A DNA stretch of 64,000 nt from Quadrisphaera granulorum (GTDB taxonomy: Bacteria > Actinomycetota > Actinomycetes > Actinomycetales > Quadrisphaeraceae): positions 1 through 64,000 of the forward strand of contig NZ_QGDQ01000022.1 in assembly GCF_003149145.1 (NCBI RefSeq), given 5' to 3'. The notes beneath the pieces were generated by a model. That model was not told the DNA's origin, searched no databases, and saw only the letters and a program-made list of their open reading frames with translations. Shown here piece after piece: positions 7,685 through 42,773 of the stretch. The position numbers were made by a program, and so were the translations under genes. Positions within the stretch are counted from its first letter, which is position 1. Every line of letters begins with the position of its first letter.

Positions 7685-7802
7685 TCCGGTAGTCTCTCCA
7701 CTGGGTGTGTCGTGTGCTGTCGGAGGTCTCGCTGAGCGAGGTCGAGGTCGGCGGCGCCGGTCGCCGCGGTCACAGGCTGTGCTGTCCCGATGCTGATCCG
7801 CA

Positions 7803-7820
7803 GTTGATCTGGTGTTGATC
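7803..7820 (+). repeat. copy 2 of the GTTGATCTGGTG-type element (rpsA leader)
   Basis: GTTGATCTGGTGTTGATC lies 90 bp upstream of the rpsA start and nearly repeats the sequence at 5534-5552. The 225 bp between the methyltransferase and rpsA (7685-7909) show no other recognisable element. Confidence 0.5.
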
Positions 7821-7909
7821 CGGTGCGTCCTCCGTGGTGGTCGAGCGTCTGACGCTCCCGCTCAACCGTCCACCACTCATTCCCTGTCCGCATCGGAGCC
7901 CACCCCTTC

Positions 7910-9412
7910 ATGACCGCCACCCTCCCGACGTCGAGCGCTCCCCAGGTCGCCTTCAACGACATCGGCACCGCCGAAGAGCTGCTCGCCGCGATCGACGAGA
8001 CGATCAAGTACTTCAACGACGGAGACATCGTCTCCGGCACCATCGTCAAGGTCGACCGCGACGAGGTCCTCCTCGACATCGGCTACAAGACCGAGGGCGT
8101 CATCCCCTCGCGCGAGCTGTCCATCAAGCACGACGTCGACCCCAGCGAGGTCGTCGGCGTCGGTGACGAGGTCGAGGCCCTCGTTCTCCAGAAGGAGGAC
8201 AAGGAAGGCCGCCTCATCCTGTCCAAGAAGCGGGCTCAGTACGAGCGCGCCTGGGGCACGATCGAGAAGCTGAAGGAGGAGGACGGCGTCGTCACCGGCA
8301 CCGTCATCGAGGTCGTCAAGGGCGGCCTCATCCTCGACATCGGCCTGCGCGGCTTCCTGCCCGCTTCCCTCGTCGAGATGCGCCGCGTGCGCGACCTGGC
8401 CCCCTACGTGGGCCAGCAGCTCGAGGCGAAGATCATCGAGCTCGACAAGAACCGCAACAACGTGGTGCTGTCGCGCCGTGCCTGGCTGGAGGAGACCCAG
8501 TCGGCCGTCCGCCAGAACTTCCTGCAGACCCTGCAGCGCGGCCAGGTCCGCCCGGGCGTCGTGTCCTCGATCGTCAACTTCGGCGCCTTCGTCGACCTCG
8601 GCGGCGTGGACGGCCTGGTGCACGTCTCGGAGCTGTCCTGGAAGCACATCGACCACCCCTCCGAGGTGGTCGAGGTCGGCCAGGAGGTCAAGGTCGAGGT
8701 CCTCGACGTCGACATGGACCGCGAGCGCGTGTCCCTGTCGCTGAAGGCCACCCAGGAAGACCCGTGGCAGCAGTTCGCTCGCACCCACGCCATCGGGCAG
8801 GTCGTGCCGGGCAAGGTCACCAAGCTCGTCCCGTTCGGTGCGTTCGTGCGCGTCGAGGAGGGCATCGAGGGCCTGGTCCACATCTCCGAGCTGGCCGAGC
8901 GTCACGTGGAGCTGCCGGAGCAGGTCGTCAACGTCGGTGACGACATCTTCGTCAAGGTCATCGACATCGACCTCGAGCGTCGCCGCATCTCGCTGTCGCT
9001 GAAGCAGGCCAACCAGGGCGTCGACACGGAGTCCGAGGACTTCGACCCGTCGCTGTACGGCATGGCCGCGGAGTACGACGAGGCCGGCAACTACAAGTAC
9101 CCCGAGGGCTTCGACCCCGAGACCAACGACTGGCTCGAGGGCTTCGAGGCGCAGCGCGAGGAGTGGGAGCGGCAGTACGCCGAGGCCCACGCCCGTTGGG
9201 AGGCGCACCGCAAGCAGGTCGCCGAGGCGCGCACCCGCGACGCCGAGGCCGCGACCTCCGGCGAGGCCGCCCCGACGAGCTACTCCAGCTCGGCCCCGGT
9301 CGAGTCCAGCTCCAGCTCGAGCTCGAGCCGTTCCTCCGGCCCCGCGGTCGAGGGCACCCTGGCCTCCGACGAGGCGCTGGCCGCTCTGCGCGAGAAGCTC
9401 ACCGGCGGCTGA
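7910..9412 (+). CDS. rpsA: 30S ribosomal protein S1
   Basis: Ribosomal protein S1 binds mRNA and helps translation initiation. The 500-residue product has four S1 RNA-binding repeats (about residues 37-109, 124-192, 209-280 and 295-368), as in other actinobacteria, against six in E. coli. Each has the GxV...G(A/F)FV...GLVH.SEL pattern, clearest in the last two. The C-terminal tail (about 440-500) is acidic and then Ser-rich, with a run of eight Ser residues. The gene stands alone and is closed by a strong hairpin at 9468-9502. ATG 7910 is the only sensible start. Confidence 0.97.
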   Translation: MTATLPTSSAPQVAFNDIGTAEELLAAIDETIKYFNDGDIVSGTIVKVDRDEVLLDIGYKTEGVIPSRELSIKHDVDPSEVVGVGDEVEALVLQKEDKEGRLILSKKRAQYERAWGTIEKLKEEDGVVTGTVIEVVKGGLILDIGLRGFLPASLVEMRRVRDLAPYVGQQLEAKIIELDKNRNNVVLSRRAWLEETQSAVRQNFLQTLQRGQVRPGVVSSIVNFGAFVDLGGVDGLVHVSELSWKHIDHPSEVVEVGQEVKVEVLDVDMDRERVSLSLKATQEDPWQQFARTHAIGQVVPGKVTKLVPFGAFVRVEEGIEGLVHISELAERHVELPEQVVNVGDDIFVKVIDIDLERRRISLSLKQANQGVDTESEDFDPSLYGMAAEYDEAGNYKYPEGFDPETNDWLEGFEAQREEWERQYAEAHARWEAHRKQVAEARTRDAEAATSGEAAPTSYSSSAPVESSSSSSSSRSSGPAVEGTLASDEALAALREKLTGG

Positions 9413-13117: not shown

Positions 13118-14167
13118 ATGGACGTCCCTCTTTGGCTATGGGGAGTCACCCTCGCCGCCATCCTCGGCATGATCGTGTACGACTTCGTCGGGCACGTGCG
13201 CACGCCGCACGCCCCCTCGATCCGAGAGGCGGCCATCTGGTCGGCCGCCTACGTCGGCATCGCCGTCGTCTTCGGTCTGCTGATCCTGGTCTTCTACGGC
13301 GGTCAGTACGGCGGTGAGTACTTCGCCGGGTACATCACCGAGAAGGCGCTCAGCGTCGACAACCTCTTCGTCTTCGTGCTGATCCTGTCCAGCTTCGCGG
13401 TGCCGCGTGAATACCAGCAGAAGGTGCTGCTCATCGGCATCGCCATCGCCATCGTGCTGCGCGGCATCTTCATCGCCATCGGGGCGGCAGCCATCGAGAA
13501 CTTCTCGTGGGTCTTCTGGCTCTTCGGCGCGATCCTCATCTACACCGCGATCGCCCAGGTGAGGGCCCAGAACGACCACGACGAGGAGTTCAAGGAGAAC
13601 GCGGTCCTGCGCTTCACCAAGCGCATCCTGCCGACCACCGACGACTACCACGGCGACAAGTTCACGACGAAGATCGACGGCAAGCGGTTCGTCACGCCGA
13701 TGCTCGTCGTCATCATCGCCATCGGCACCGCCGACCTCATCTTCGCCGTCGACTCGATCCCGGCGATCTTCGGCCTGACGCAGGAGCCGTACCTCGTCTT
13801 CGCGGCCAACGCGTTCTCGCTGCTCGGCCTGCGCCAGCTGTACTTCCTCATCGACGGTCTGCTCGACCGCCTCGTGTACCTGCACTACGGCCTCGCCGCG
13901 ATCCTCGCGTTCATCGGCGCCAAGCTGATCATCCACGCGATGCACAAGAACGAGCTGCCGTTCCTCAACGGTGGCGAGCCCATCACCGCCATCCCGGAGA
14001 TCCCGACCCCGCTGTCGCTAGGGTTCATCGTCGTCGCGCTGGCTGTCACCACGGTGCTGAGCCTGCGCAAGTCCTCCAAGGACGCTGACAAGAACTCCGA
14101 CCGCGAGGGGAAGAACGTGAGCACCACCACCGGAGCCGGATCGGGCTCCACCCGCCAGGACGGCTGA
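13118..14167 (+). CDS. TerC family integral membrane protein (first copy)
   Basis: This 349-residue polytopic TerC-family protein is related to exporters that protect against excess Mn2+ and is named after tellurite resistance genes. Hydrophobic helices span the chain, with the hallmark acidic membrane motifs SVDNLFVF (about residue 82) and FAVDSIPAIFG (about 209). The C-terminal 45 residues are a polar Ser/Thr/Gly tail. GGAGG six bases before ATG 13118 supports the start. The second terC follows after two bases. The candidate Mn riboswitch upstream points to manganese homeostasis. Confidence 0.92.
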   Translation: MDVPLWLWGVTLAAILGMIVYDFVGHVRTPHAPSIREAAIWSAAYVGIAVVFGLLILVFYGGQYGGEYFAGYITEKALSVDNLFVFVLILSSFAVPREYQQKVLLIGIAIAIVLRGIFIAIGAAAIENFSWVFWLFGAILIYTAIAQVRAQNDHDEEFKENAVLRFTKRILPTTDDYHGDKFTTKIDGKRFVTPMLVVIIAIGTADLIFAVDSIPAIFGLTQEPYLVFAANAFSLLGLRQLYFLIDGLLDRLVYLHYGLAAILAFIGAKLIIHAMHKNELPFLNGGEPITAIPEIPTPLSLGFIVVALAVTTVLSLRKSSKDADKNSDREGKNVSTTTGAGSGSTRQDG

Positions 14168-14169
14168 CG

Positions 14170-15162
14170 GTGCAGGAGCTGCCGACCTGGTTCGAGGTCG
14201 GCACCCTCATCGCGCTCGTGGGGCTGCTGCTCGCCGACCTTCTGGTCGTCGGGCGGCGGCCCCATGTGCCGTCCACCAAGGAGAGTGCCCTCTGGGTCTC
14301 CTTCTACGTGGCCCTCGCCATTGCCTTCGGCGTGGTCATGCTGCTCATCCCGGGCGGAGGCACCGAACCCGCCTCCGAGTTCTTCGCCGGGTGGATCACG
14401 GAGTACTCGCTCAGCGTCGACAACCTCTTCGTCTTCGTGATCATCATGTCGAGGTTCGCGGTGCCCGCGGAGGACCAGCAGAAGGTCCTCATGGTGGGCA
14501 TCCTCATCGCGCTCGTGCTGCGAGGGATCTTCATCCTGCTCGGCGCCGCGGTCATCGAGCAGTTCAGCTGGGTCTTCTACATCTTCGGCGCGTTCCTCAT
14601 CTACACCGCTGTCAAGCTGGTGCTCGACAGGAACGAGGACGAGGAGTACGAGGACAACGCCCTCATCCGCAGGATGCGGAAGATCCTCCCCCTCACCGAG
14701 CACTACGACGGCGCGAAGGTCCGGACCGTGGTGGACGGCAAGATGCTGTTCACCCCGATGATCATCGTGTTCTTCGCCATCGGCAGCACCGACCTGCTGT
14801 TCGCACTCGACTCGATCCCGGCGATCTTCGGCCTCACCGAGGACCCGTTCATCGTGTTCACCGCCAACCTCTTCGCGCTCATGGGGCTGCGCCAGCTGTA
14901 CTTCCTGCTGGGGGGCCTGCTGGACCGGCTCGTCTACCTGTCCATCGGGCTGGCGGTGGTGCTCGGTGGCATCGGCATCAAGCTCGTGCTCGAGGCGCTG
15001 CACACCAACGAGCTGCCGTTCCTCAACGGCGGCGAGCCCTTCCCGTGGGCGCCCGAGGTGCCGATCTGGGTCTCGCTGGTGTTCATCGTCTCGGTGCTGG
15101 CGATCACCACGGTCGCCAGCCTGCTGCGCAGTCGCCAGCTGGAGCGCCGCGACCACGCCTGA
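14170..15162 (+). CDS. TerC family integral membrane protein (second copy)
   Basis: This 330-residue TerC-family membrane protein is clearly paralogous to the preceding gene. It shares SVDNLFVF, QQKVL, FALDSIPAIFGL and NELPFLNGGEP in the same order. It starts at GTG two bases after the upstream stop, so it is probably translationally coupled in one operon. It lacks the long polar tail of the first copy. The pair probably arose by tandem duplication. A strong hairpin at 15211-15244 ends the operon. Metal export, possibly of Mn2+, is inferred from the family and the leader. Confidence 0.92.
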   Translation: MQELPTWFEVGTLIALVGLLLADLLVVGRRPHVPSTKESALWVSFYVALAIAFGVVMLLIPGGGTEPASEFFAGWITEYSLSVDNLFVFVIIMSRFAVPAEDQQKVLMVGILIALVLRGIFILLGAAVIEQFSWVFYIFGAFLIYTAVKLVLDRNEDEEYEDNALIRRMRKILPLTEHYDGAKVRTVVDGKMLFTPMIIVFFAIGSTDLLFALDSIPAIFGLTEDPFIVFTANLFALMGLRQLYFLLGGLLDRLVYLSIGLAVVLGGIGIKLVLEALHTNELPFLNGGEPFPWAPEVPIWVSLVFIVSVLAITTVASLLRSRQLERRDHA

Positions 15163-15275: not shown

Positions 15276-15917
15276 TCACCAGCCGCGTGCGCGGTACTCG
15301 CCCAGGCGCGGTCGCTCCGCGCCGATCGTCGTCGTCTCCCCATGACCGGGATGGACGACGGTGCTGTCGGGCAGGACGGCGAACACCCGCTCCTCGAGGT
15401 CGTCCATGAGCGAGGTGAAGTCCTCCGGCGACCACGTCTTCCCCGGTCCGCCCGGAAAGAGCGAGTCGCCCGTGAAGAGGTGCCCCACCTCACCGTCGGG
15501 GCCGGGCAGCGCTCCGGGCGGCAGCAGCAGCGCGACCGACCCCGGGGTGTGCCCGCGCAGAGCCGTCACGCCCAGCTCGTGCGCGCCGACGGTGACGACG
15601 TCGCCGTGCTTCAGGCGGCGGTCGGGCGCCAGCGGGATCGCGTCGGCGTCGTCGTCGCCGGCTGCCGTCGTGGCGCCGGTAGCCGCGGCCACCTGGGCCA
15701 GCGCCCCCGTGTGGTCGTCGTGGCGGTGGGTGGTCACCACGAGGCCCTCGCCCCGCTGCGCCGTCGGGAGCGCCTCCTCGAGCAGCGCCAGCAGCCGCTC
15801 CGGTTCAGCGGCGGCGTCCACGAGCAGCCACGCGCCGCTGGCTCCGTCACGTCCGTCCGTGAGCAGGTAGCAACGGTTGTCCATCGGTCCCACCGAGACC
15901 GTCCGTAGGTCGAGCAT
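15276..15917 (-). CDS. metallo-beta-lactamase fold hydrolase
   Basis: This 213-residue glyoxalase II-like member of the metallo-beta-lactamase superfamily has the metal site visible as THRHDDHTG (HxHxDH), HTPGS, FTGDSLF and HPGHGETT. Proteins of this subgroup hydrolyse thioesters such as S-lactoylglutathione or related thiol adducts, but the substrate here is not known. The ATG at 15917 overlaps the stop codon of the upstream GH15 gene (TGATG), so the two are translationally coupled. The frame extends upstream without a stop, but that extension lies within the GH15 gene and is Arg-rich shadow sequence. Confidence 0.92.
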   Translation of the reverse strand: MLDLRTVSVGPMDNRCYLLTDGRDGASGAWLLVDAAAEPERLLALLEEALPTAQRGEGLVVTTHRHDDHTGALAQVAAATGATTAAGDDDADAIPLAPDRRLKHGDVVTVGAHELGVTALRGHTPGSVALLLPPGALPGPDGEVGHLFTGDSLFPGGPGKTWSPEDFTSLMDDLEERVFAVLPDSTVVHPGHGETTTIGAERPRLGEYRARGW

Positions 15918-17854
15918 CAGCGTTCCAGCTCCTGTCCGTCGGGTCCTCCTGCGCGCCGGTCGGCCGCGGCCAGGGCGTCGGCGGCCCTGACCAGCGCGAG
16001 GTGCGACAGCGCCTGGGGAGTGTTGCCCAGCTGGTGCCCGTCGTGCACGTCGTACTCCTCGGAGAGCAGGCCGACGTCGTTGCGCAGGCCCAGCAGTCGC
16101 CGCATGAGGGCGTGCCCGTCCTCGAGGCGTCCGCTGCGGGCGTACTGCTCCACCAGCCAGAACGAGCACGCGAGGAACGGGTGCTCACCCGGCGGCAGCC
16201 CGTCGGAGGACGCCTCGGTCCGGTACCGGAGCACCAGCCCGTCCGGCATGAGGTCGGACTCGATGGCCGCCACCGTGGCGAGCATCGCCGGGTGGTCGGG
16301 CGCCACGAAACCCACCTGGGGCAGCTGCAGCAGCGAGGCGTCGACCTCGCGGGTGCCGTAGTGCTGCACGAAGCACCCGCGGCCGGGACGGTCCGGCGTG
16401 CCGGTGTCGACACCGTGCTCGAGCACCTCGGCGCGCACCTGGTCGCGCAGGGCCTCCCACTGCTCGACGGGGCCGTCGAGGTCGTGCTCGCGGACGGCGC
16501 GCACGCCGCGGTCCAGCGCCGCCCAGATCATGACCCGCGAGTGCACGTAGTACTGCTCGGCGCCCCGCATCTCCCAGATGCCCGAGTCCTTGCGGGCGGT
16601 GTGGGAGACCACGAAGTCGAGCAGGGCCCGCTGCATCGGCCAGGAGAACGCGTCCTCCACGAGCCCCGCGCGCCGGGCGGCGTCCAGCGCGACCATCACC
16701 TCGCCGAGCACGTCGGCCTGGTACTGCTCCACGGCACCGTTGCCGATCCGCACCGGCTTCGCGCCGCCGAACCCGGGCAGGTGGGCGAGCTCGCGCTCGG
16801 GCAGGTCTCGGGCGCCGTCGACGGCGTACATGATCTGCAGGTCCTCGGGGTCGCCCGCGATGGCTCGCAGCAGCCACCCGCGCCACTCGCTGGCCTCCTC
16901 GGTGTACCCGTGCGCCAGGAGGGCCTCGAGCGTGAGTGCCGCATCACGCAGCCAGCAGTAGCGGTAGTCCCAGTTGCGCGTGCCGCCGGGCATCTCCGGC
17001 AGGGATGTGGTGGCCGCCGCGACGATGCCGCCGGTGTCCTCGTGGGTCAGGGCGCGCAGCACCAGCAGAGACCGCACCACCGCACCCGCGTATGGCCCCT
17101 CCGCCGCCGGCCCGTCGCCGCGGGCGGCCCAGTCCTGCCACCAGCGCCGGGTGCTCTCCAGACGCTTCTCGACCTCCATGGGCACCGGGGGCTCGCGGTG
17201 GGAGGGATACCAGGTCAGCACCGTGTCGACCACGTCCCCCGGCGACACCCGGATCATGCCGACGTGCGTGCGCCCCTTCGCCTTCGGCAGCGTGCCGGTG
17301 GTCCGCAGCAGCACCGCGTCGGGGCCGGCGCTCGCCAGCAGACCGCGGGCGTCGTCGCCCTTGCCCCCGATGCGTCGCACCCACGGCACGACGGCGCCGT
17401 ACCCGAAGCGGATCACCAGCTCCTGCCGCAGCACCACGCGGCCGGCCACCCCGACCACGCGGCGCACCAGGTCGGCGCGGCGGTCTCCCATGGGCATGGC
17501 GTCGAGGACGTCGACGACCCCGCCGTCCTCCAGCGTCCACCGCGTGCGCAGCACGAAGGAGTCGCCCACGTACTCCCGGTCCACCGACACCACGGCCGGT
17601 CCGCCGTCGGGCGGCGCGATGGTCCAGTGGCCGTGCTCGGGACCACCCAGCAGCGCGGCGAACGCGGCGGGGGAGTCGAAGCGGGGCAGGCACATCCAGT
17701 CGATCGACCCGCGGTCGCTCACCAGCGCCGCGGTGTGGCAGTCACCGACGAGGGCGTAGTCCTCGATGTGGTGACCTTGCTGCTGGTCTGGCTGCTGGTC
17801 CGGTTGCTGGTCCGGTTGCTGGCCGACCTGGGGGATGGGTGAAGCTGATGGCAC
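15917..17854 (-). CDS. glycoside hydrolase family 15 protein (glucoamylase/trehalase-like)
   Basis: This protein of about 645 residues follows the GH15 pattern: HIEDYALVGDCHTAALV near the N-terminus, then a beta-sandwich region, then an (alpha/alpha)6 barrel containing GTRNWDYRYCWLRDAALT, a GH15 catalytic-domain hallmark. Actinobacterial members include trehalases and alpha-glucosidases. There is no signal peptide, so an intracellular role in trehalose or glycan turnover is likely but unproven. GTG 17854 is chosen; GTG 17869 is possible. The N-terminus has a Gln/Pro/Asp repeat from a 12-bp DNA repeat. It is divergent from the G6PD-like gene with overlapping start regions. Confidence 0.9.
   Translation of the reverse strand: MPSASPIPQVGQQPDQQPDQQPDQQQGHHIEDYALVGDCHTAALVSDRGSIDWMCLPRFDSPAAFAALLGGPEHGHWTIAPPDGGPAVVSVDREYVGDSFVLRTRWTLEDGGVVDVLDAMPMGDRRADLVRRVVGVAGRVVLRQELVIRFGYGAVVPWVRRIGGKGDDARGLLASAGPDAVLLRTTGTLPKAKGRTHVGMIRVSPGDVVDTVLTWYPSHREPPVPMEVEKRLESTRRWWQDWAARGDGPAAEGPYAGAVVRSLLVLRALTHEDTGGIVAAATTSLPEMPGGTRNWDYRYCWLRDAALTLEALLAHGYTEEASEWRGWLLRAIAGDPEDLQIMYAVDGARDLPERELAHLPGFGGAKPVRIGNGAVEQYQADVLGEVMVALDAARRAGLVEDAFSWPMQRALLDFVVSHTARKDSGIWEMRGAEQYYVHSRVMIWAALDRGVRAVREHDLDGPVEQWEALRDQVRAEVLEHGVDTGTPDRPGRGCFVQHYGTREVDASLLQLPQVGFVAPDHPAMLATVAAIESDLMPDGLVLRYRTEASSDGLPPGEHPFLACSFWLVEQYARSGRLEDGHALMRRLLGLRNDVGLLSEEYDVHDGHQLGNTPQALSHLALVRAADALAAADRRAGGPDGQELER
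17780..17823. repeat. 12-bp tandem repeat in the GH15 N-terminal coding region
   Basis: About 3.6 copies of a 12-bp unit (CTGCTGGTCCGG type) encode an in-frame repeat of Gln-Gln-Pro-Asp just before the GH15 domain. Copy number may vary between strains. Confidence 0.85.
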
Positions 17855-17899
17855 CGCGACATCGTGCACCTGACCGCGATCTTCGGCAGGCTGAAGGCC

Positions 17900-19450
17900 G
17901 TGAGCGAGCAGCAGCAGGTCGACGGCCAGGCGACCGGGGGCACGGAGAGCGGTCGTGCAGGTAGCTCCGGGCCGGAGCAGCCCGGCGGAGGCGGTCACGG
18001 CGCGTCCGGCGAACGGGGGCACAGCGGCGGTGACCCGGTGGCCACGCTCCTCGTCCTGGGCGCCAGCGGCGATCTCGCTTCCCGGCTGCTCCTACCGGGG
18101 CTGGCGCGCCTGCTGGTGTCCGATCGCAACGAGGGTCCCGGCCGTCATGAGCACAGCCGCGATGGCCTTCGCCTCGTGGGTGCGGGAGCGGAGGACTGGG
18201 ACGACGACCGGTGGCGCGAGGTCGTCACGAAGGCCTTCGCCGGTGCCCAGGAGCACGGCGACGACAAGGGCTGGGCCGCGGCGTGCGCCGTCCGCGACAC
18301 CAGCCGGTACGCGAAGGTCGACGTCACCGACCCGGACGCCCTCACCGCCCTGATGGCTTCCTGCGAGGCGCCGGTCGCCGTCTACTTCGCGCTGCCGCCG
18401 GGCATCACGGCGAAGGCCTGCGAGAAGCTCGTCGGCCAGCAGCTGCCGGAGAGCACCCGCCTGGTGATGGAGAAGCCGTTCGGCTCCGACGAGGCCTCCG
18501 CCCACCAGCTCAACGAGGTGGTCGCGCAGCTCGTCCCCGAGGAGCACGTGCACCGGGTCGACCACTTCCTCGGCACGTCGACCGTGCTCAACATCTTCGG
18601 GGTGCGGTTCGCCAACCGCCTCTTCGAGCCGACGTGGAACGCCAGCCACGTCGAGCGGGTCGACGTCCTCTACGACGAGGACCTCGGTCTGGAGGGGCGG
18701 GCCCGGTACTACGACAAGGCCGGGGCCCTCAAGGACATGATCCAGAGCCACCTCCTGCAGGTGCTCGCGGTGCTGGCCATGGACGCCCCCGCAGCCCTGG
18801 ACGAGCGCGAGTTCCGCGACCGCAAGGCCCAGGTGCTGCGCGCCACCCGCCTCGCGGGCACGCCCGCCCAGGCCAGCCGCCGCGCGGTCTACACCGCCGG
18901 GCGCATGGGAGACCGCGACCTGCCCGACTACCAGGCCGAGGACGGCGTGGACCCGTCCCGCCAGACCGAGACGCTCGCCGAGGTGGTGCTCCACATCGAC
19001 ACCTGGCGGTGGGCGGGCGTTCCGTTCCGGCTCCGCTCTGGCAAGGGGCTGGGCCGGGCCCGCAAGGAGGCCGTCATCACCTTCAAGCCGGTGCCGCACC
19101 TCGTCGCGGGACTGCACGGCGAGGCTCGCCCGACGCGGCTGCGGCTGTCCTTCAAACCGGGGGTCATCAACCTCGACCTCATGGTGAACGCCGAGGGCGA
19201 CCCGTTCGACCTCGAGGAGACCACCCTGACGGCACAGCTGGGCGACTCCGAGCTGCCCGCTTACGGCGAGGTGCTCGCGGGCGTCCTCGACGGAGACCCG
19301 CTGCTGTCCGTGCGTGGCGACACCGCCGAGGACTGCTGGCGCATCCTCGCGCCGGTCATCGCCGCGTGGGAGGCCGACGAGGTGCCGCTGGAGACCTACC
19401 CCGCCGGCAGCGACGGACCGGAGCCGACCGAGGCCTTCCCCGCGGTGTGA
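17900..19450 (+). CDS. glucose-6-phosphate dehydrogenase-like protein (divergent paralog)
   Basis: This is a G6PD-family oxidoreductase paralogous to the zwf at 41.2 kb. The NADP-binding loop is [19 protein letters not shown] and the active-site region reads [13 protein letters not shown], followed by [13 protein letters not shown]. Compared with the family motifs GDLAKxK and R(I/V)DHYLGKE, the lysine of the dinucleotide loop and the phosphate-binding lysine of GKE are both replaced (S and T). The Asp-His pair and the catalytic-type His in MIQSHLLQ remain. The substrate may differ from glucose 6-phosphate. The start is uncertain: GTG 17864, 17900 or 18038; the first 45 residues are low-complexity. 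It is divergent from the GH15-MBL pair. Confidence 0.88.
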
Positions 19451-19484: not shown

Positions 19485-19490
19485 TACAGT
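19485..19490 (+). promoter_or_regulatory. -10 element of uvrA, leaderless configuration
   Basis: TACAGT ends eight bases before GTG 19499. No Shine-Dalgarno sequence is present. Confidence 0.55.
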
Positions 19491-19498
19491 TGACGACC

Positions 19499-22434
<2,936 letters not shown>

Positions 22435-22438
<4 letters not shown>

Positions 22439-41164: not shown

Positions 41165-42718
<1,554 letters not shown>

Positions 42719-42773
42719 CAGTGGTTCACCTGACCGGACATGCGACGAGCGGTAACGATCTGCAGCGAAACAA

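What the first reader, a model, noticed from the sequence alone, without database searches (positions are those of the whole stretch)
17900..19450. G6PD paralog lacking two conserved active-site lysines, beside GH15 and MBL genes
The true zwf at 41-42.7 kb has GDLARKK and RIDHYLGKE. The paralog has GDLASRL and RVDHFLGTS. The lysine of GKE binds the substrate phosphate in characterised G6PDs. The paralog keeps the Asp-His pair and the rest of the fold, and is divergent from a GH15 glucosidase/trehalase. Inference: it may act on another, perhaps non-phosphorylated, sugar released by the GH15 enzyme.
Basis: partly seen in the sequence, partly recalled or inferred. Interest (0 to 1): 0.55.

Follow-up and report, generated by a model that had tools for sequence, protein, structure and literature searches.

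The report
G6PD relative with dismantled phosphate pocket
A bacterial relative of the well-known enzyme glucose-6-phosphate dehydrogenase keeps the catalytic machinery but has lost residues that grip the sugar's phosphate, and it travels with a sugar-releasing enzyme, which suggests that it oxidises a plain sugar to make reducing power without spending ATP.

Summary
Window 17864-19450 (+) encodes a G6PD-fold protein with GDLASRL and RVDHFLGTS, divergent from a GH15 gene. It belongs to a distinct actinobacterial subfamily (NCBIfam NF009492) annotated as ordinary G6PD. In 92 non-redundant members the catalytic residues show no substitution, but the substrate-phosphate pocket has come apart: K25 (E. 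coli numbers) in 0 of 92, K181 (the 'GKE' lysine) in 38 of 92, K/R344 in 18 of 92. K181 is K in all 54 canonical rows aligned. GH15 is the only neighbour that recurs across families (47 of 106 loci, always upstream) and occurs in 99 of 99 and 34 of 35 subfamily-positive genomes. On two plasmids the pair lies in mercury-resistance clusters. Best reading: an NAD(P)-dependent dehydrogenase for a non-phosphorylated sugar, probably GH15-released glucose. The substrate is inferred, not shown. A gained Arg, a Thermus sister beside gnd, and GH15 near K-retaining G6PDs keep 'still G6PD' alive.

The parts
17864..19450 (+). G6PD-like dehydrogenase of subfamily NF009492 (start GTG 17864, 17900 or later; residues 1-55 predicted disordered)
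18068..18088 (+). GDLASRL: E. coli K25 / L. mesenteroides K21 position is Leu
18554..18580 (+). [10 protein letters not shown]233 and H234 kept; E. coli K181 (human K205) position is Thr
18749..18751 (+). Catalytic base His296 (E. coli H239, human H263), kept
19040..19066 (+). [10 protein letters not shown]394 (E. coli K339) kept; next phosphate residue (E. coli K344, human R365) is Ala399, followed by Arg400
15917..17854 (-). GH15 enzyme (trehalase/oligosaccharidase-like; start 17854 or 17869; conserved domain begins near 17773); no signal peptide seen by eye, so probably cytosolic; specificity unknown
   Evidence: archaeal TreH1 profile 362.6 bits, below its cut-off of 820
17855..17899 (.). 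Short divergent stretch between the likely starts of GH15 and the G6PD-like gene (shared control region is an inference)
15276..15917 (-).
41168..42724 (-). Canonical zwf ([16 protein letters not shown]), used as the internal comparison

Best explanation
The gene encodes an active NAD(P)-dependent sugar dehydrogenase with the G6PD fold, in which the 6-phosphate site has been dismantled. Shown by sequence: fold, kept catalytic residues, lost phosphate-site residues, purifying selection, coupling to GH15. Inferred: a cytosolic GH15 releases glucose (inverting mechanism, so at least half of it beta-D-glucose, the anomer that G6PDs oxidise; anomer preference recalled) from trehalose or an alpha-gluco-oligosaccharide. 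The G6PD-like enzyme then oxidises this sugar at C1, without phosphorylation, with H239/D176 as base and relay, giving the lactone and NAD(P)H. Proteins matching gluconolactonase and gluconokinase profiles, both present in the genome, could return gluconate to 6-phosphogluconate. The pair would thus be a short route from stored sugar to reducing power that skips ATP at the first step.
For: Subfamily is one clade apart from canonical zwf (SH-aLRT 100). Of 50 positions conserved in 97% or more of 39 canonical representatives, 34 stay at 90% or more in 93 subfamily representatives, including the catalytic ones, while K181 falls to 42%. Of four pocket positions (25 K/R, 181 K, 344 K/R, 377 Q/K/R), subfamily members keep 0 (36), 1 (44) or 2 (12) of 92; canonical ones keep 3-4 in 33 of 39. 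17 of 92 carry two or three acidic residues at 181/344/377 against 0 of 39. K181 changes state at least 29 times, K to non-K or back at least 11 times, on the tree. Human H201, Y202, K205 and R365 bind the substrate phosphate (PMC11448927, passages). GH15 upstream in 47 of 106 loci, 24 same strand, 23 divergent, in 17 of 26 coded families; the other recurrent immediate neighbours are confined to one family or a few loci. GH15 in 99 of 99 subfamily genomes of the order against 91 of 297 others. In a different G6PD clade, 2 of 4 GH15-linked genes lost the same lysine (E and Y) against 0 of 41 without GH15 in their flanks. The Pantoea GH15-linked zwf that keeps GKE comes with gnd and a ROK-family (sugar kinase type) gene. 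Gluconokinase and gluconolactonase profiles match the own genome.
Against: No member is known to me to have a tested substrate. 38 of 92 keep K181. An Arg is gained at 345 in 79 of 92 and may take over phosphate binding. H177, a phosphate ligand in canonical enzymes, is invariant. K-loss does not follow GH15 adjacency inside the subfamily (p=0.83). GH15 lies beside a K-retaining G6PD in G783 and one gene from one in Pantoea. The Thermus sister sequence shows L/K/D/V/K at 25/181/344/345/377 and sits beside gnd, so loss of two of these residues need not end G6P use. Glucokinase of ROK type is also present, so a phosphorylated route is open. Co-occurrence counts are not corrected for ancestry, and in the wider class all 16 subfamily-negative genomes tested have GH15 as well.
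Confidence: 0.47

Rival explanations
1. It is still a glucose-6-phosphate dehydrogenase. The phosphate is held by other residues (H177, K339, the gained Arg345/Lys346), and the GH15 link only means that released glucose is phosphorylated by a housekeeping kinase and burnt in the pentose phosphate route.
For: Profile annotation NF009492 'equivalog' 641 bits; Arg345 in 79 of 92, H177 and K339 without substitution; GH15-gnd-zwf-ROK operon in Pantoea with GKE kept; Thermus sister beside gnd; ROK glucokinase in the own genome.
Against: K181 is K in 54 of 54 canonical rows but M, R, L, V, E, T, W or Q in 54 of 92 subfamily representatives, with two or three acids at 181/344/377 in 17 of 92. No homologue of the Pantoea gnd or ROK gene was found in the other 187 loci searched (kinases of other types not tested). 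The genome already has two GKE-keeping G6PDs.
Confidence: 0.38
2. It oxidises another sugar phosphate or an acidic sugar bound in a shifted pose, or a disaccharide that GH15 also uses, rather than free glucose.
For: R345 and often K346 add positive charge beside the lost site; S311 to R, A318 to E and K389 to N are further common changes in the subfamily.
Against: 181 and 377 vary freely or turn acidic, which does not suggest one new charged ligand. Apart from GH15 no neighbour that recurs across families was seen.
Confidence: 0.1
3. It is a non-catalytic relative, for instance a regulator of the canonical enzyme.
For: All 18 subfamily-bearing genomes show at least one further G6PD match; OpcA is a known G6PD partner (recalled; structure 9emm listed).
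Against: Catalytic Asp, His and Lys show no substitution in the 92 representatives.
Confidence: 0.05

Closest known systems
Canonical glucose-6-phosphate dehydrogenase (Zwf, TIGR00871; E. coli, L. mesenteroides, human)
   Same: Full-length fold (AlphaFold model vs 1dpg Z 39.8, rmsd 2.5, 455 residues), catalytic Asp-His dyad, H177, K339, K147, E215
   Different: Pocket residues K25, K181, K/R344, Q377 mostly lost; F for Y178; often S for N238; R gained at 345; scores under the Zwf equivalog cut-off (340.8 vs 400.6)
NCBIfam NF009492 (PRK12853) 'glucose-6-phosphate dehydrogenase'
   Same: 641 bits, cut-off 428: the window protein is a plain member
   Different: The model name says G6PD; nothing seen here shows that any member was assayed
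Hexose-6-phosphate dehydrogenase (GDH/6PGL, 8em2)
   Same: G6PD-fold enzyme known to accept free glucose at high concentration (recalled); structural match Z 30.9
   Different: Eukaryotic ER enzyme fused to lactonase; not specially close (26% identity)
GH15-gnd-zwf-ROK operon of a Pantoea plasmid
   Same: GH15 linked to a G6PD homologue
   Different: Different GH15 (annotated glucan 1,4-alpha-glucosidase; no match to it in the other loci at 1e-12) and a GKE-keeping zwf, with gnd and a ROK-family gene in the operon

Membership tests
G6PD superfamily (Pfam PF02781, fold) | Profile score over the cut-off and full-length G6PD fold | tested here: met
   247.4 bits, cut-off 27; model pLDDT 79.4, Z about 40 against G6PDs
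G6PD superfamily (Pfam PF02781, fold) | Catalytic Asp-His dyad and general-base His | tested here: met
   D176 and H177 in 92 of 92, H239 in 91 of 91 readable representatives; present in the window protein
NF009492 subfamily | Score over the curated cut-off; placement in its clade | tested here: met
   641.2 vs 428 bits; clade SH-aLRT 100
Canonical Zwf equivalog TIGR00871 | Score over the curated cut-off | tested here: not met
   340.8 vs 400.6 bits; note that the GKE-keeping third copy also misses it, 362.2
Functional glucose-6-phosphate dehydrogenase | Phosphate-binding Lys (E. coli K181) and its partners K25, K/R344, Q377 | tested here: not met
   L, T, A and K at 25/181/344/377 in the window protein; only the Lys at 377 is positive and it replaces a Gln
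Functional glucose-6-phosphate dehydrogenase | Turnover of glucose 6-phosphate | not testable with these tools
   No assay; no docking, as model coordinates were not on hand
Archaeal GH15 trehalase TreH1 (NF041084), for the neighbour | Score over the curated cut-off | tested here: not met
   362.6 vs 820 bits; plasmid homologues are annotated as glycoside hydrolase family 15

The most novel reading that the evidence does not exclude
GH15 plus a phosphate-blind G6PD-fold enzyme form a portable, kinase-free NAD(P)H generator that turns stored trehalose or oligosaccharide into reducing power. It has arisen more than once: besides this subfamily, GH15-linked Zwf genes of another clade (G779: GKE to GEE; G775: GKE to GYM) lost the same lysine. 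It has been taken up into mercury-resistance plasmids, where it would feed NADPH-dependent mercuric reductase (merA, merB, oxidoreductase, GH15, G6PD-like on pCP2; the same order with three further genes interposed on pACHL02).
Probability: 0.33. Interest if true: 0.75.

Novelty: new variant of a known kind. Interest (0 to 1): 0.58.

Why it matters
The gene is common (99 of 396 sampled genomes of the order) and carries the NCBI model name 'glucose-6-phosphate dehydrogenase'. If the phosphate is not used, those annotations and the flux models built on them are wrong. There would then be an unrecognised ATP-free route from trehalose or oligosaccharide to NAD(P)H, with a natural series of enzymes in which a textbook binding site was taken apart while the chemistry stayed. 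The mercury-plasmid setting gives a concrete physiological test.

Tried and rejected
Rejected: a decaying copy (core omega 0.12-0.19 in six comparisons; GH15 0.136 and 0.195 in two). A private oddity of one strain (all six own-genus genomes have GTS). The idea that GH15 adjacency drives the lysine loss inside the subfamily (p=0.83; 8 of 106 loci with an unreadable motif left out). A recurrent gnd or ROK neighbour (no homologue of the Pantoea genes in the other 187 loci). A clean charge-for-charge swap for K181: among 42 representatives without K or R at 181, 9 have two, 30 have one and 3 have no Lys/Arg at 25/344/345/377.

Other recurrent neighbours were looked at: three clusters close to the gene in 8-9 loci each, all in one family (f6), one (uvrA-like) in 5 loci of the own family plus one other, one in 3 loci; these read as regional gene order.

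Led nowhere: paper searches for the GH15 link, for extra zwf copies, for unphosphorylated substrates, for mer plus G6PD and for K205T. Judged by titles and abstract starts only, none of the papers listed describes this subfamily; the long listings were capped at 12 or 20 of 56-529 papers, and only the open-access library was searched. No solved structure matched the GH15 at E 1e-10. Docking was not possible. The first neighbour scan timed out and was redone with a GC-frame filter; a script failed on a division and was redone.

Limits: the tree is a quick search, the 181 column was left in it, and row L164 inside the clade was not counted for state changes. The 100 genome regions were picked by me for spread from three searches, not at random, and two come from one genome. 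The 2-of-4 against 0-of-41 contrast was found after the fact (Fisher p 0.006), with flanks of about 1.5-2 kb for the 41. Subfamily-negative genomes are those without a match at the E limit used, so distant members may hide among them.

Full report
What is there. The window lies in an actinomycete that I take to be Quadrisphaera-like: the closest named orthologues come from Quadrisphaera sp. INWT6 and from genomes filed as Streptomyces sp. NP160 and Kineococcus rubinsiae. At 17864-19450 (+) there is a 528-aa G6PD homologue with GDLASRL and RVDHFLGTS. The canonical zwf at 41168-42724 (-) reads GDLARKK and RIDHYLGKE. The genome holds three G6PDs; the third is on another contig and keeps GKE. The paralog and a GH15 gene (15917 to about 17854, -) are transcribed away from each other across some tens of bases (starts not settled), and an MBL-type ORF follows GH15.

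Which family. The paralog scores 641 bits against NCBIfam NF009492 (cut-off 428) and 340.8 against the Zwf equivalog TIGR00871 (cut-off 400.6); for the canonical copy these are 421 and 646.8. In a tree of 108 rows the subfamily is one clade apart from E. coli and actinobacterial zwf (SH-aLRT 100). It is sporadic but wide: 13 of 13 genomes of the family at E 1e-100, 99 of 396 of the order at E 1e-100, 26 of 394 of the class at E 1e-110 and 28 of 296 of the phylum at E 1e-80. An AlphaFold model (mean pLDDT 79.4; residues 1-55 and 90-98 under 50) matches G6PDs over nearly the whole length, for example 1dpg Z 39.8 over 455 residues.

The pocket. In human G6PD, Asp200 works in catalysis with the base His263; His201, Tyr202, Lys205 and Arg365 bind the substrate phosphate, and Gln395 and Lys360 are also named (PMC11448927, passages read). 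I mapped these by motif onto E. coli numbers: D176, H239, H177, Y178, K181, K344, Q377, K339 (the matches for Gln395 and Lys360 are my own reading). That L. mesenteroides K21 (here K25) takes part in substrate binding is recalled; in E. coli simulations K25 adds to NADP+ binding (PMC4807051, passage), so it may belong to the coenzyme side. One search compares 92 subfamily representatives (75% identity clusters, Thermus sister left out) with 39 canonical ones. Kept without substitution: K147, D176, H177, E215, R222, D234, H239, K339 (one gap in several columns). Changed: K25 (32 of 39 K in canonical; 0 of 92 in the subfamily: L 64, Y 24, F 1, gap 3); K181 (39 of 39 against 38 of 92, the rest M 18, R 12, L 11, V 4, E 4, T 3, W 1, Q 1); K or R at 344 (31 of 39 against 18 of 92, the rest mainly P 23 and D 22); Q377 (28 of 39 Q against G 38, D 19, K 9 and others); Y178 to F in 89 of 92 (also F in 7 of 39 canonical); N238 to S in 64 of 92. 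Position 345 is Arg in 79 of 92. The window protein has L, T, A, R, K at 25/181/344/345/377.

Is this more than drift? Of 50 positions conserved in at least 97% of the canonical set, 34 stay at 90% or more in the subfamily; K181 is one of ten that fall below 50%, the others having no phosphate role known to me (93 representatives, Thermus included). All 54 canonical rows have K181. On the tree the site changes state at least 29 times and crosses between K and non-K at least 11 times. A site that wanders through M, L, V, E and W while the base, the relay and H177 stay fixed is what one expects if the ligand no longer has a phosphate there. It is not proof.

The partner. In 101 regions (window plus 100 genome regions) GH15 was by far the most frequent immediate neighbour (41 loci). 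The other clusters close to the gene lie in one family (three clusters, 8-9 loci, f6), mainly in the own family (uvrA-like, 6 loci) or in three loci. With five plasmid loci added, 47 of 106 have GH15, always upstream of the G6PD-like gene, 24 on the same strand and 23 divergent, in 17 of the 26 coded families. Aligned gaps are mostly under 300 bp; the two largest are 837 bp (L237) and 646 bp (L303, a DUF3231 gene between). The script's 'down' label for 11 pairs reflects start/stop overlaps and one partial alignment (L213; one search places its GH15 six bases upstream). In the order sample every one of 99 subfamily genomes has a close GH15 (E 1e-100) against 91 of 297 others. Outside the order it is 34 of 35 (E 1e-50; miss G864) against 30 of 45, of which 16 of 16 in the class and 14 of 29 beyond it. 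None of these counts is corrected for shared ancestry. Both genes are under purifying selection. The GH15 has no evident signal peptide (by eye). GH15 trehalases are given as inverting (PMC10969515, passages).

Mercury plasmids. In Rhodococcus qingshengii pCP2 the order is merA, merB, NAD(P)/FAD oxidoreductase, GH15, G6PD-like, FAD oxidoreductase. In Pseudarthrobacter chlorophenolicus pACHL02 it is merA, merB, hypothetical, oxidoreductase, hypothetical, GH15, DUF3231, G6PD-like. Mercuric reductase uses NADPH (recalled), so a sugar-fed NAD(P)H source would make sense there. The pCP2 copy has GTS, the pACHL02 copy GKS. merB was found in 2 of the 188 loci searched: these two. A third plasmid pair in Streptomyces sp. 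NBC_00055 overlaps by 4 bases.

A second clade. Outside the subfamily, GH15 is linked to Zwf-type genes in four cases seen. G783 (RMDHFLGKE, adjacent) and Pantoea (RIDHFLGKE; GH15, gnd, zwf, ROK-family gene in a row) keep the lysine. G779 (RIDHFVGEE) and G775 (RIDHFLGYM), both adjacent, have lost it. Of 41 such genes without GH15 in the flanks held, all keep it (p 0.006, noticed after the fact). This points the same way as the subfamily, and also shows that a GH15 link alone does not require the loss.

Against. K-loss and adjacency are unrelated inside the subfamily (14 of 31 against 32 of 67, p 0.83). Arg345 may replace the lost charges. The Thermus sister, beside gnd, already lacks K25 and K344. 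Own-genome matches to ROK glucokinase, gluconokinase and gluconolactonase profiles are all present, so both routes are open. No biochemical study of the subfamily appeared in the listings of the paper searches named under Tried and rejected.

Coenzyme. E. coli R50, important for NADP+ preference (PMC4807051, passages and section 14), is R in 45 of 93 subfamily representatives and A in the window protein. NAD+ use by this copy is possible; I do not commit.

Verdict. Observation confirmed; interpretation partly supported and sharpened: a subfamily-wide loss of phosphate-site residues in a G6PD-fold enzyme tied to GH15, most likely a dehydrogenase for a non-phosphorylated sugar (0.47), with a re-tooled G6PD as the main rival (0.38). 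On checking I lowered the first figure by 0.01 because GH15 proved as common in the class-level negatives and because K25 may serve the coenzyme.

Noticed in passing
L304 2347-10762 and L303 400-9404: GH15 plus G6PD-like pair inside merA-merB mercury-resistance clusters on two actinobacterial plasmids; in pACHL02 a DUF3231 gene sits between the pair.
   Followed up: partly
L321 5901-7259, L322 about 7751-9103: GH15-adjacent G6PDs of a different clade have lost the same lysine (GEE, GYM); G783 (L320) next to GH15 keeps GKE.
   Followed up: yes
L135-L139 (genomes of another family, f14, in the order): Copies 81-83% identical to the window protein, with GTS, in a different family and without GH15 in the flanks held; looks like horizontal transfer.
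   Followed up: no
L042: A record titled Vibrio cholerae strain 35D carries an Arthrobacter-type locus (60% identity to the window protein, like the Arthrobacter copies); mislabelled or contaminated assembly.
   Followed up: no
L312: Thermus plasmid zwf falls at the base of the subfamily clade in a FastTree run, lacks K25 and K344 but keeps K181, and is followed by gnd.
   Followed up: partly
window 13118-15162: Two tandem ORFs that look like TerC/Alx-family membrane proteins (named from memory, no profile search).
   Followed up: no
window 19490-22438: A uvrA-like gene (named by sequence look) follows directly. In 9 of 13 genomes of the family the paralog and a canonical-type zwf lie within about 25 kb of each other; in the other 4 (G005, G007, G010, G012) they are on different contigs or the second was not found.
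   Followed up: no
L260 and L261 (genome G485): One genome carries two subfamily copies (52% and 60% identical to the window protein), one with M and one with K at position 181.
   Followed up: no
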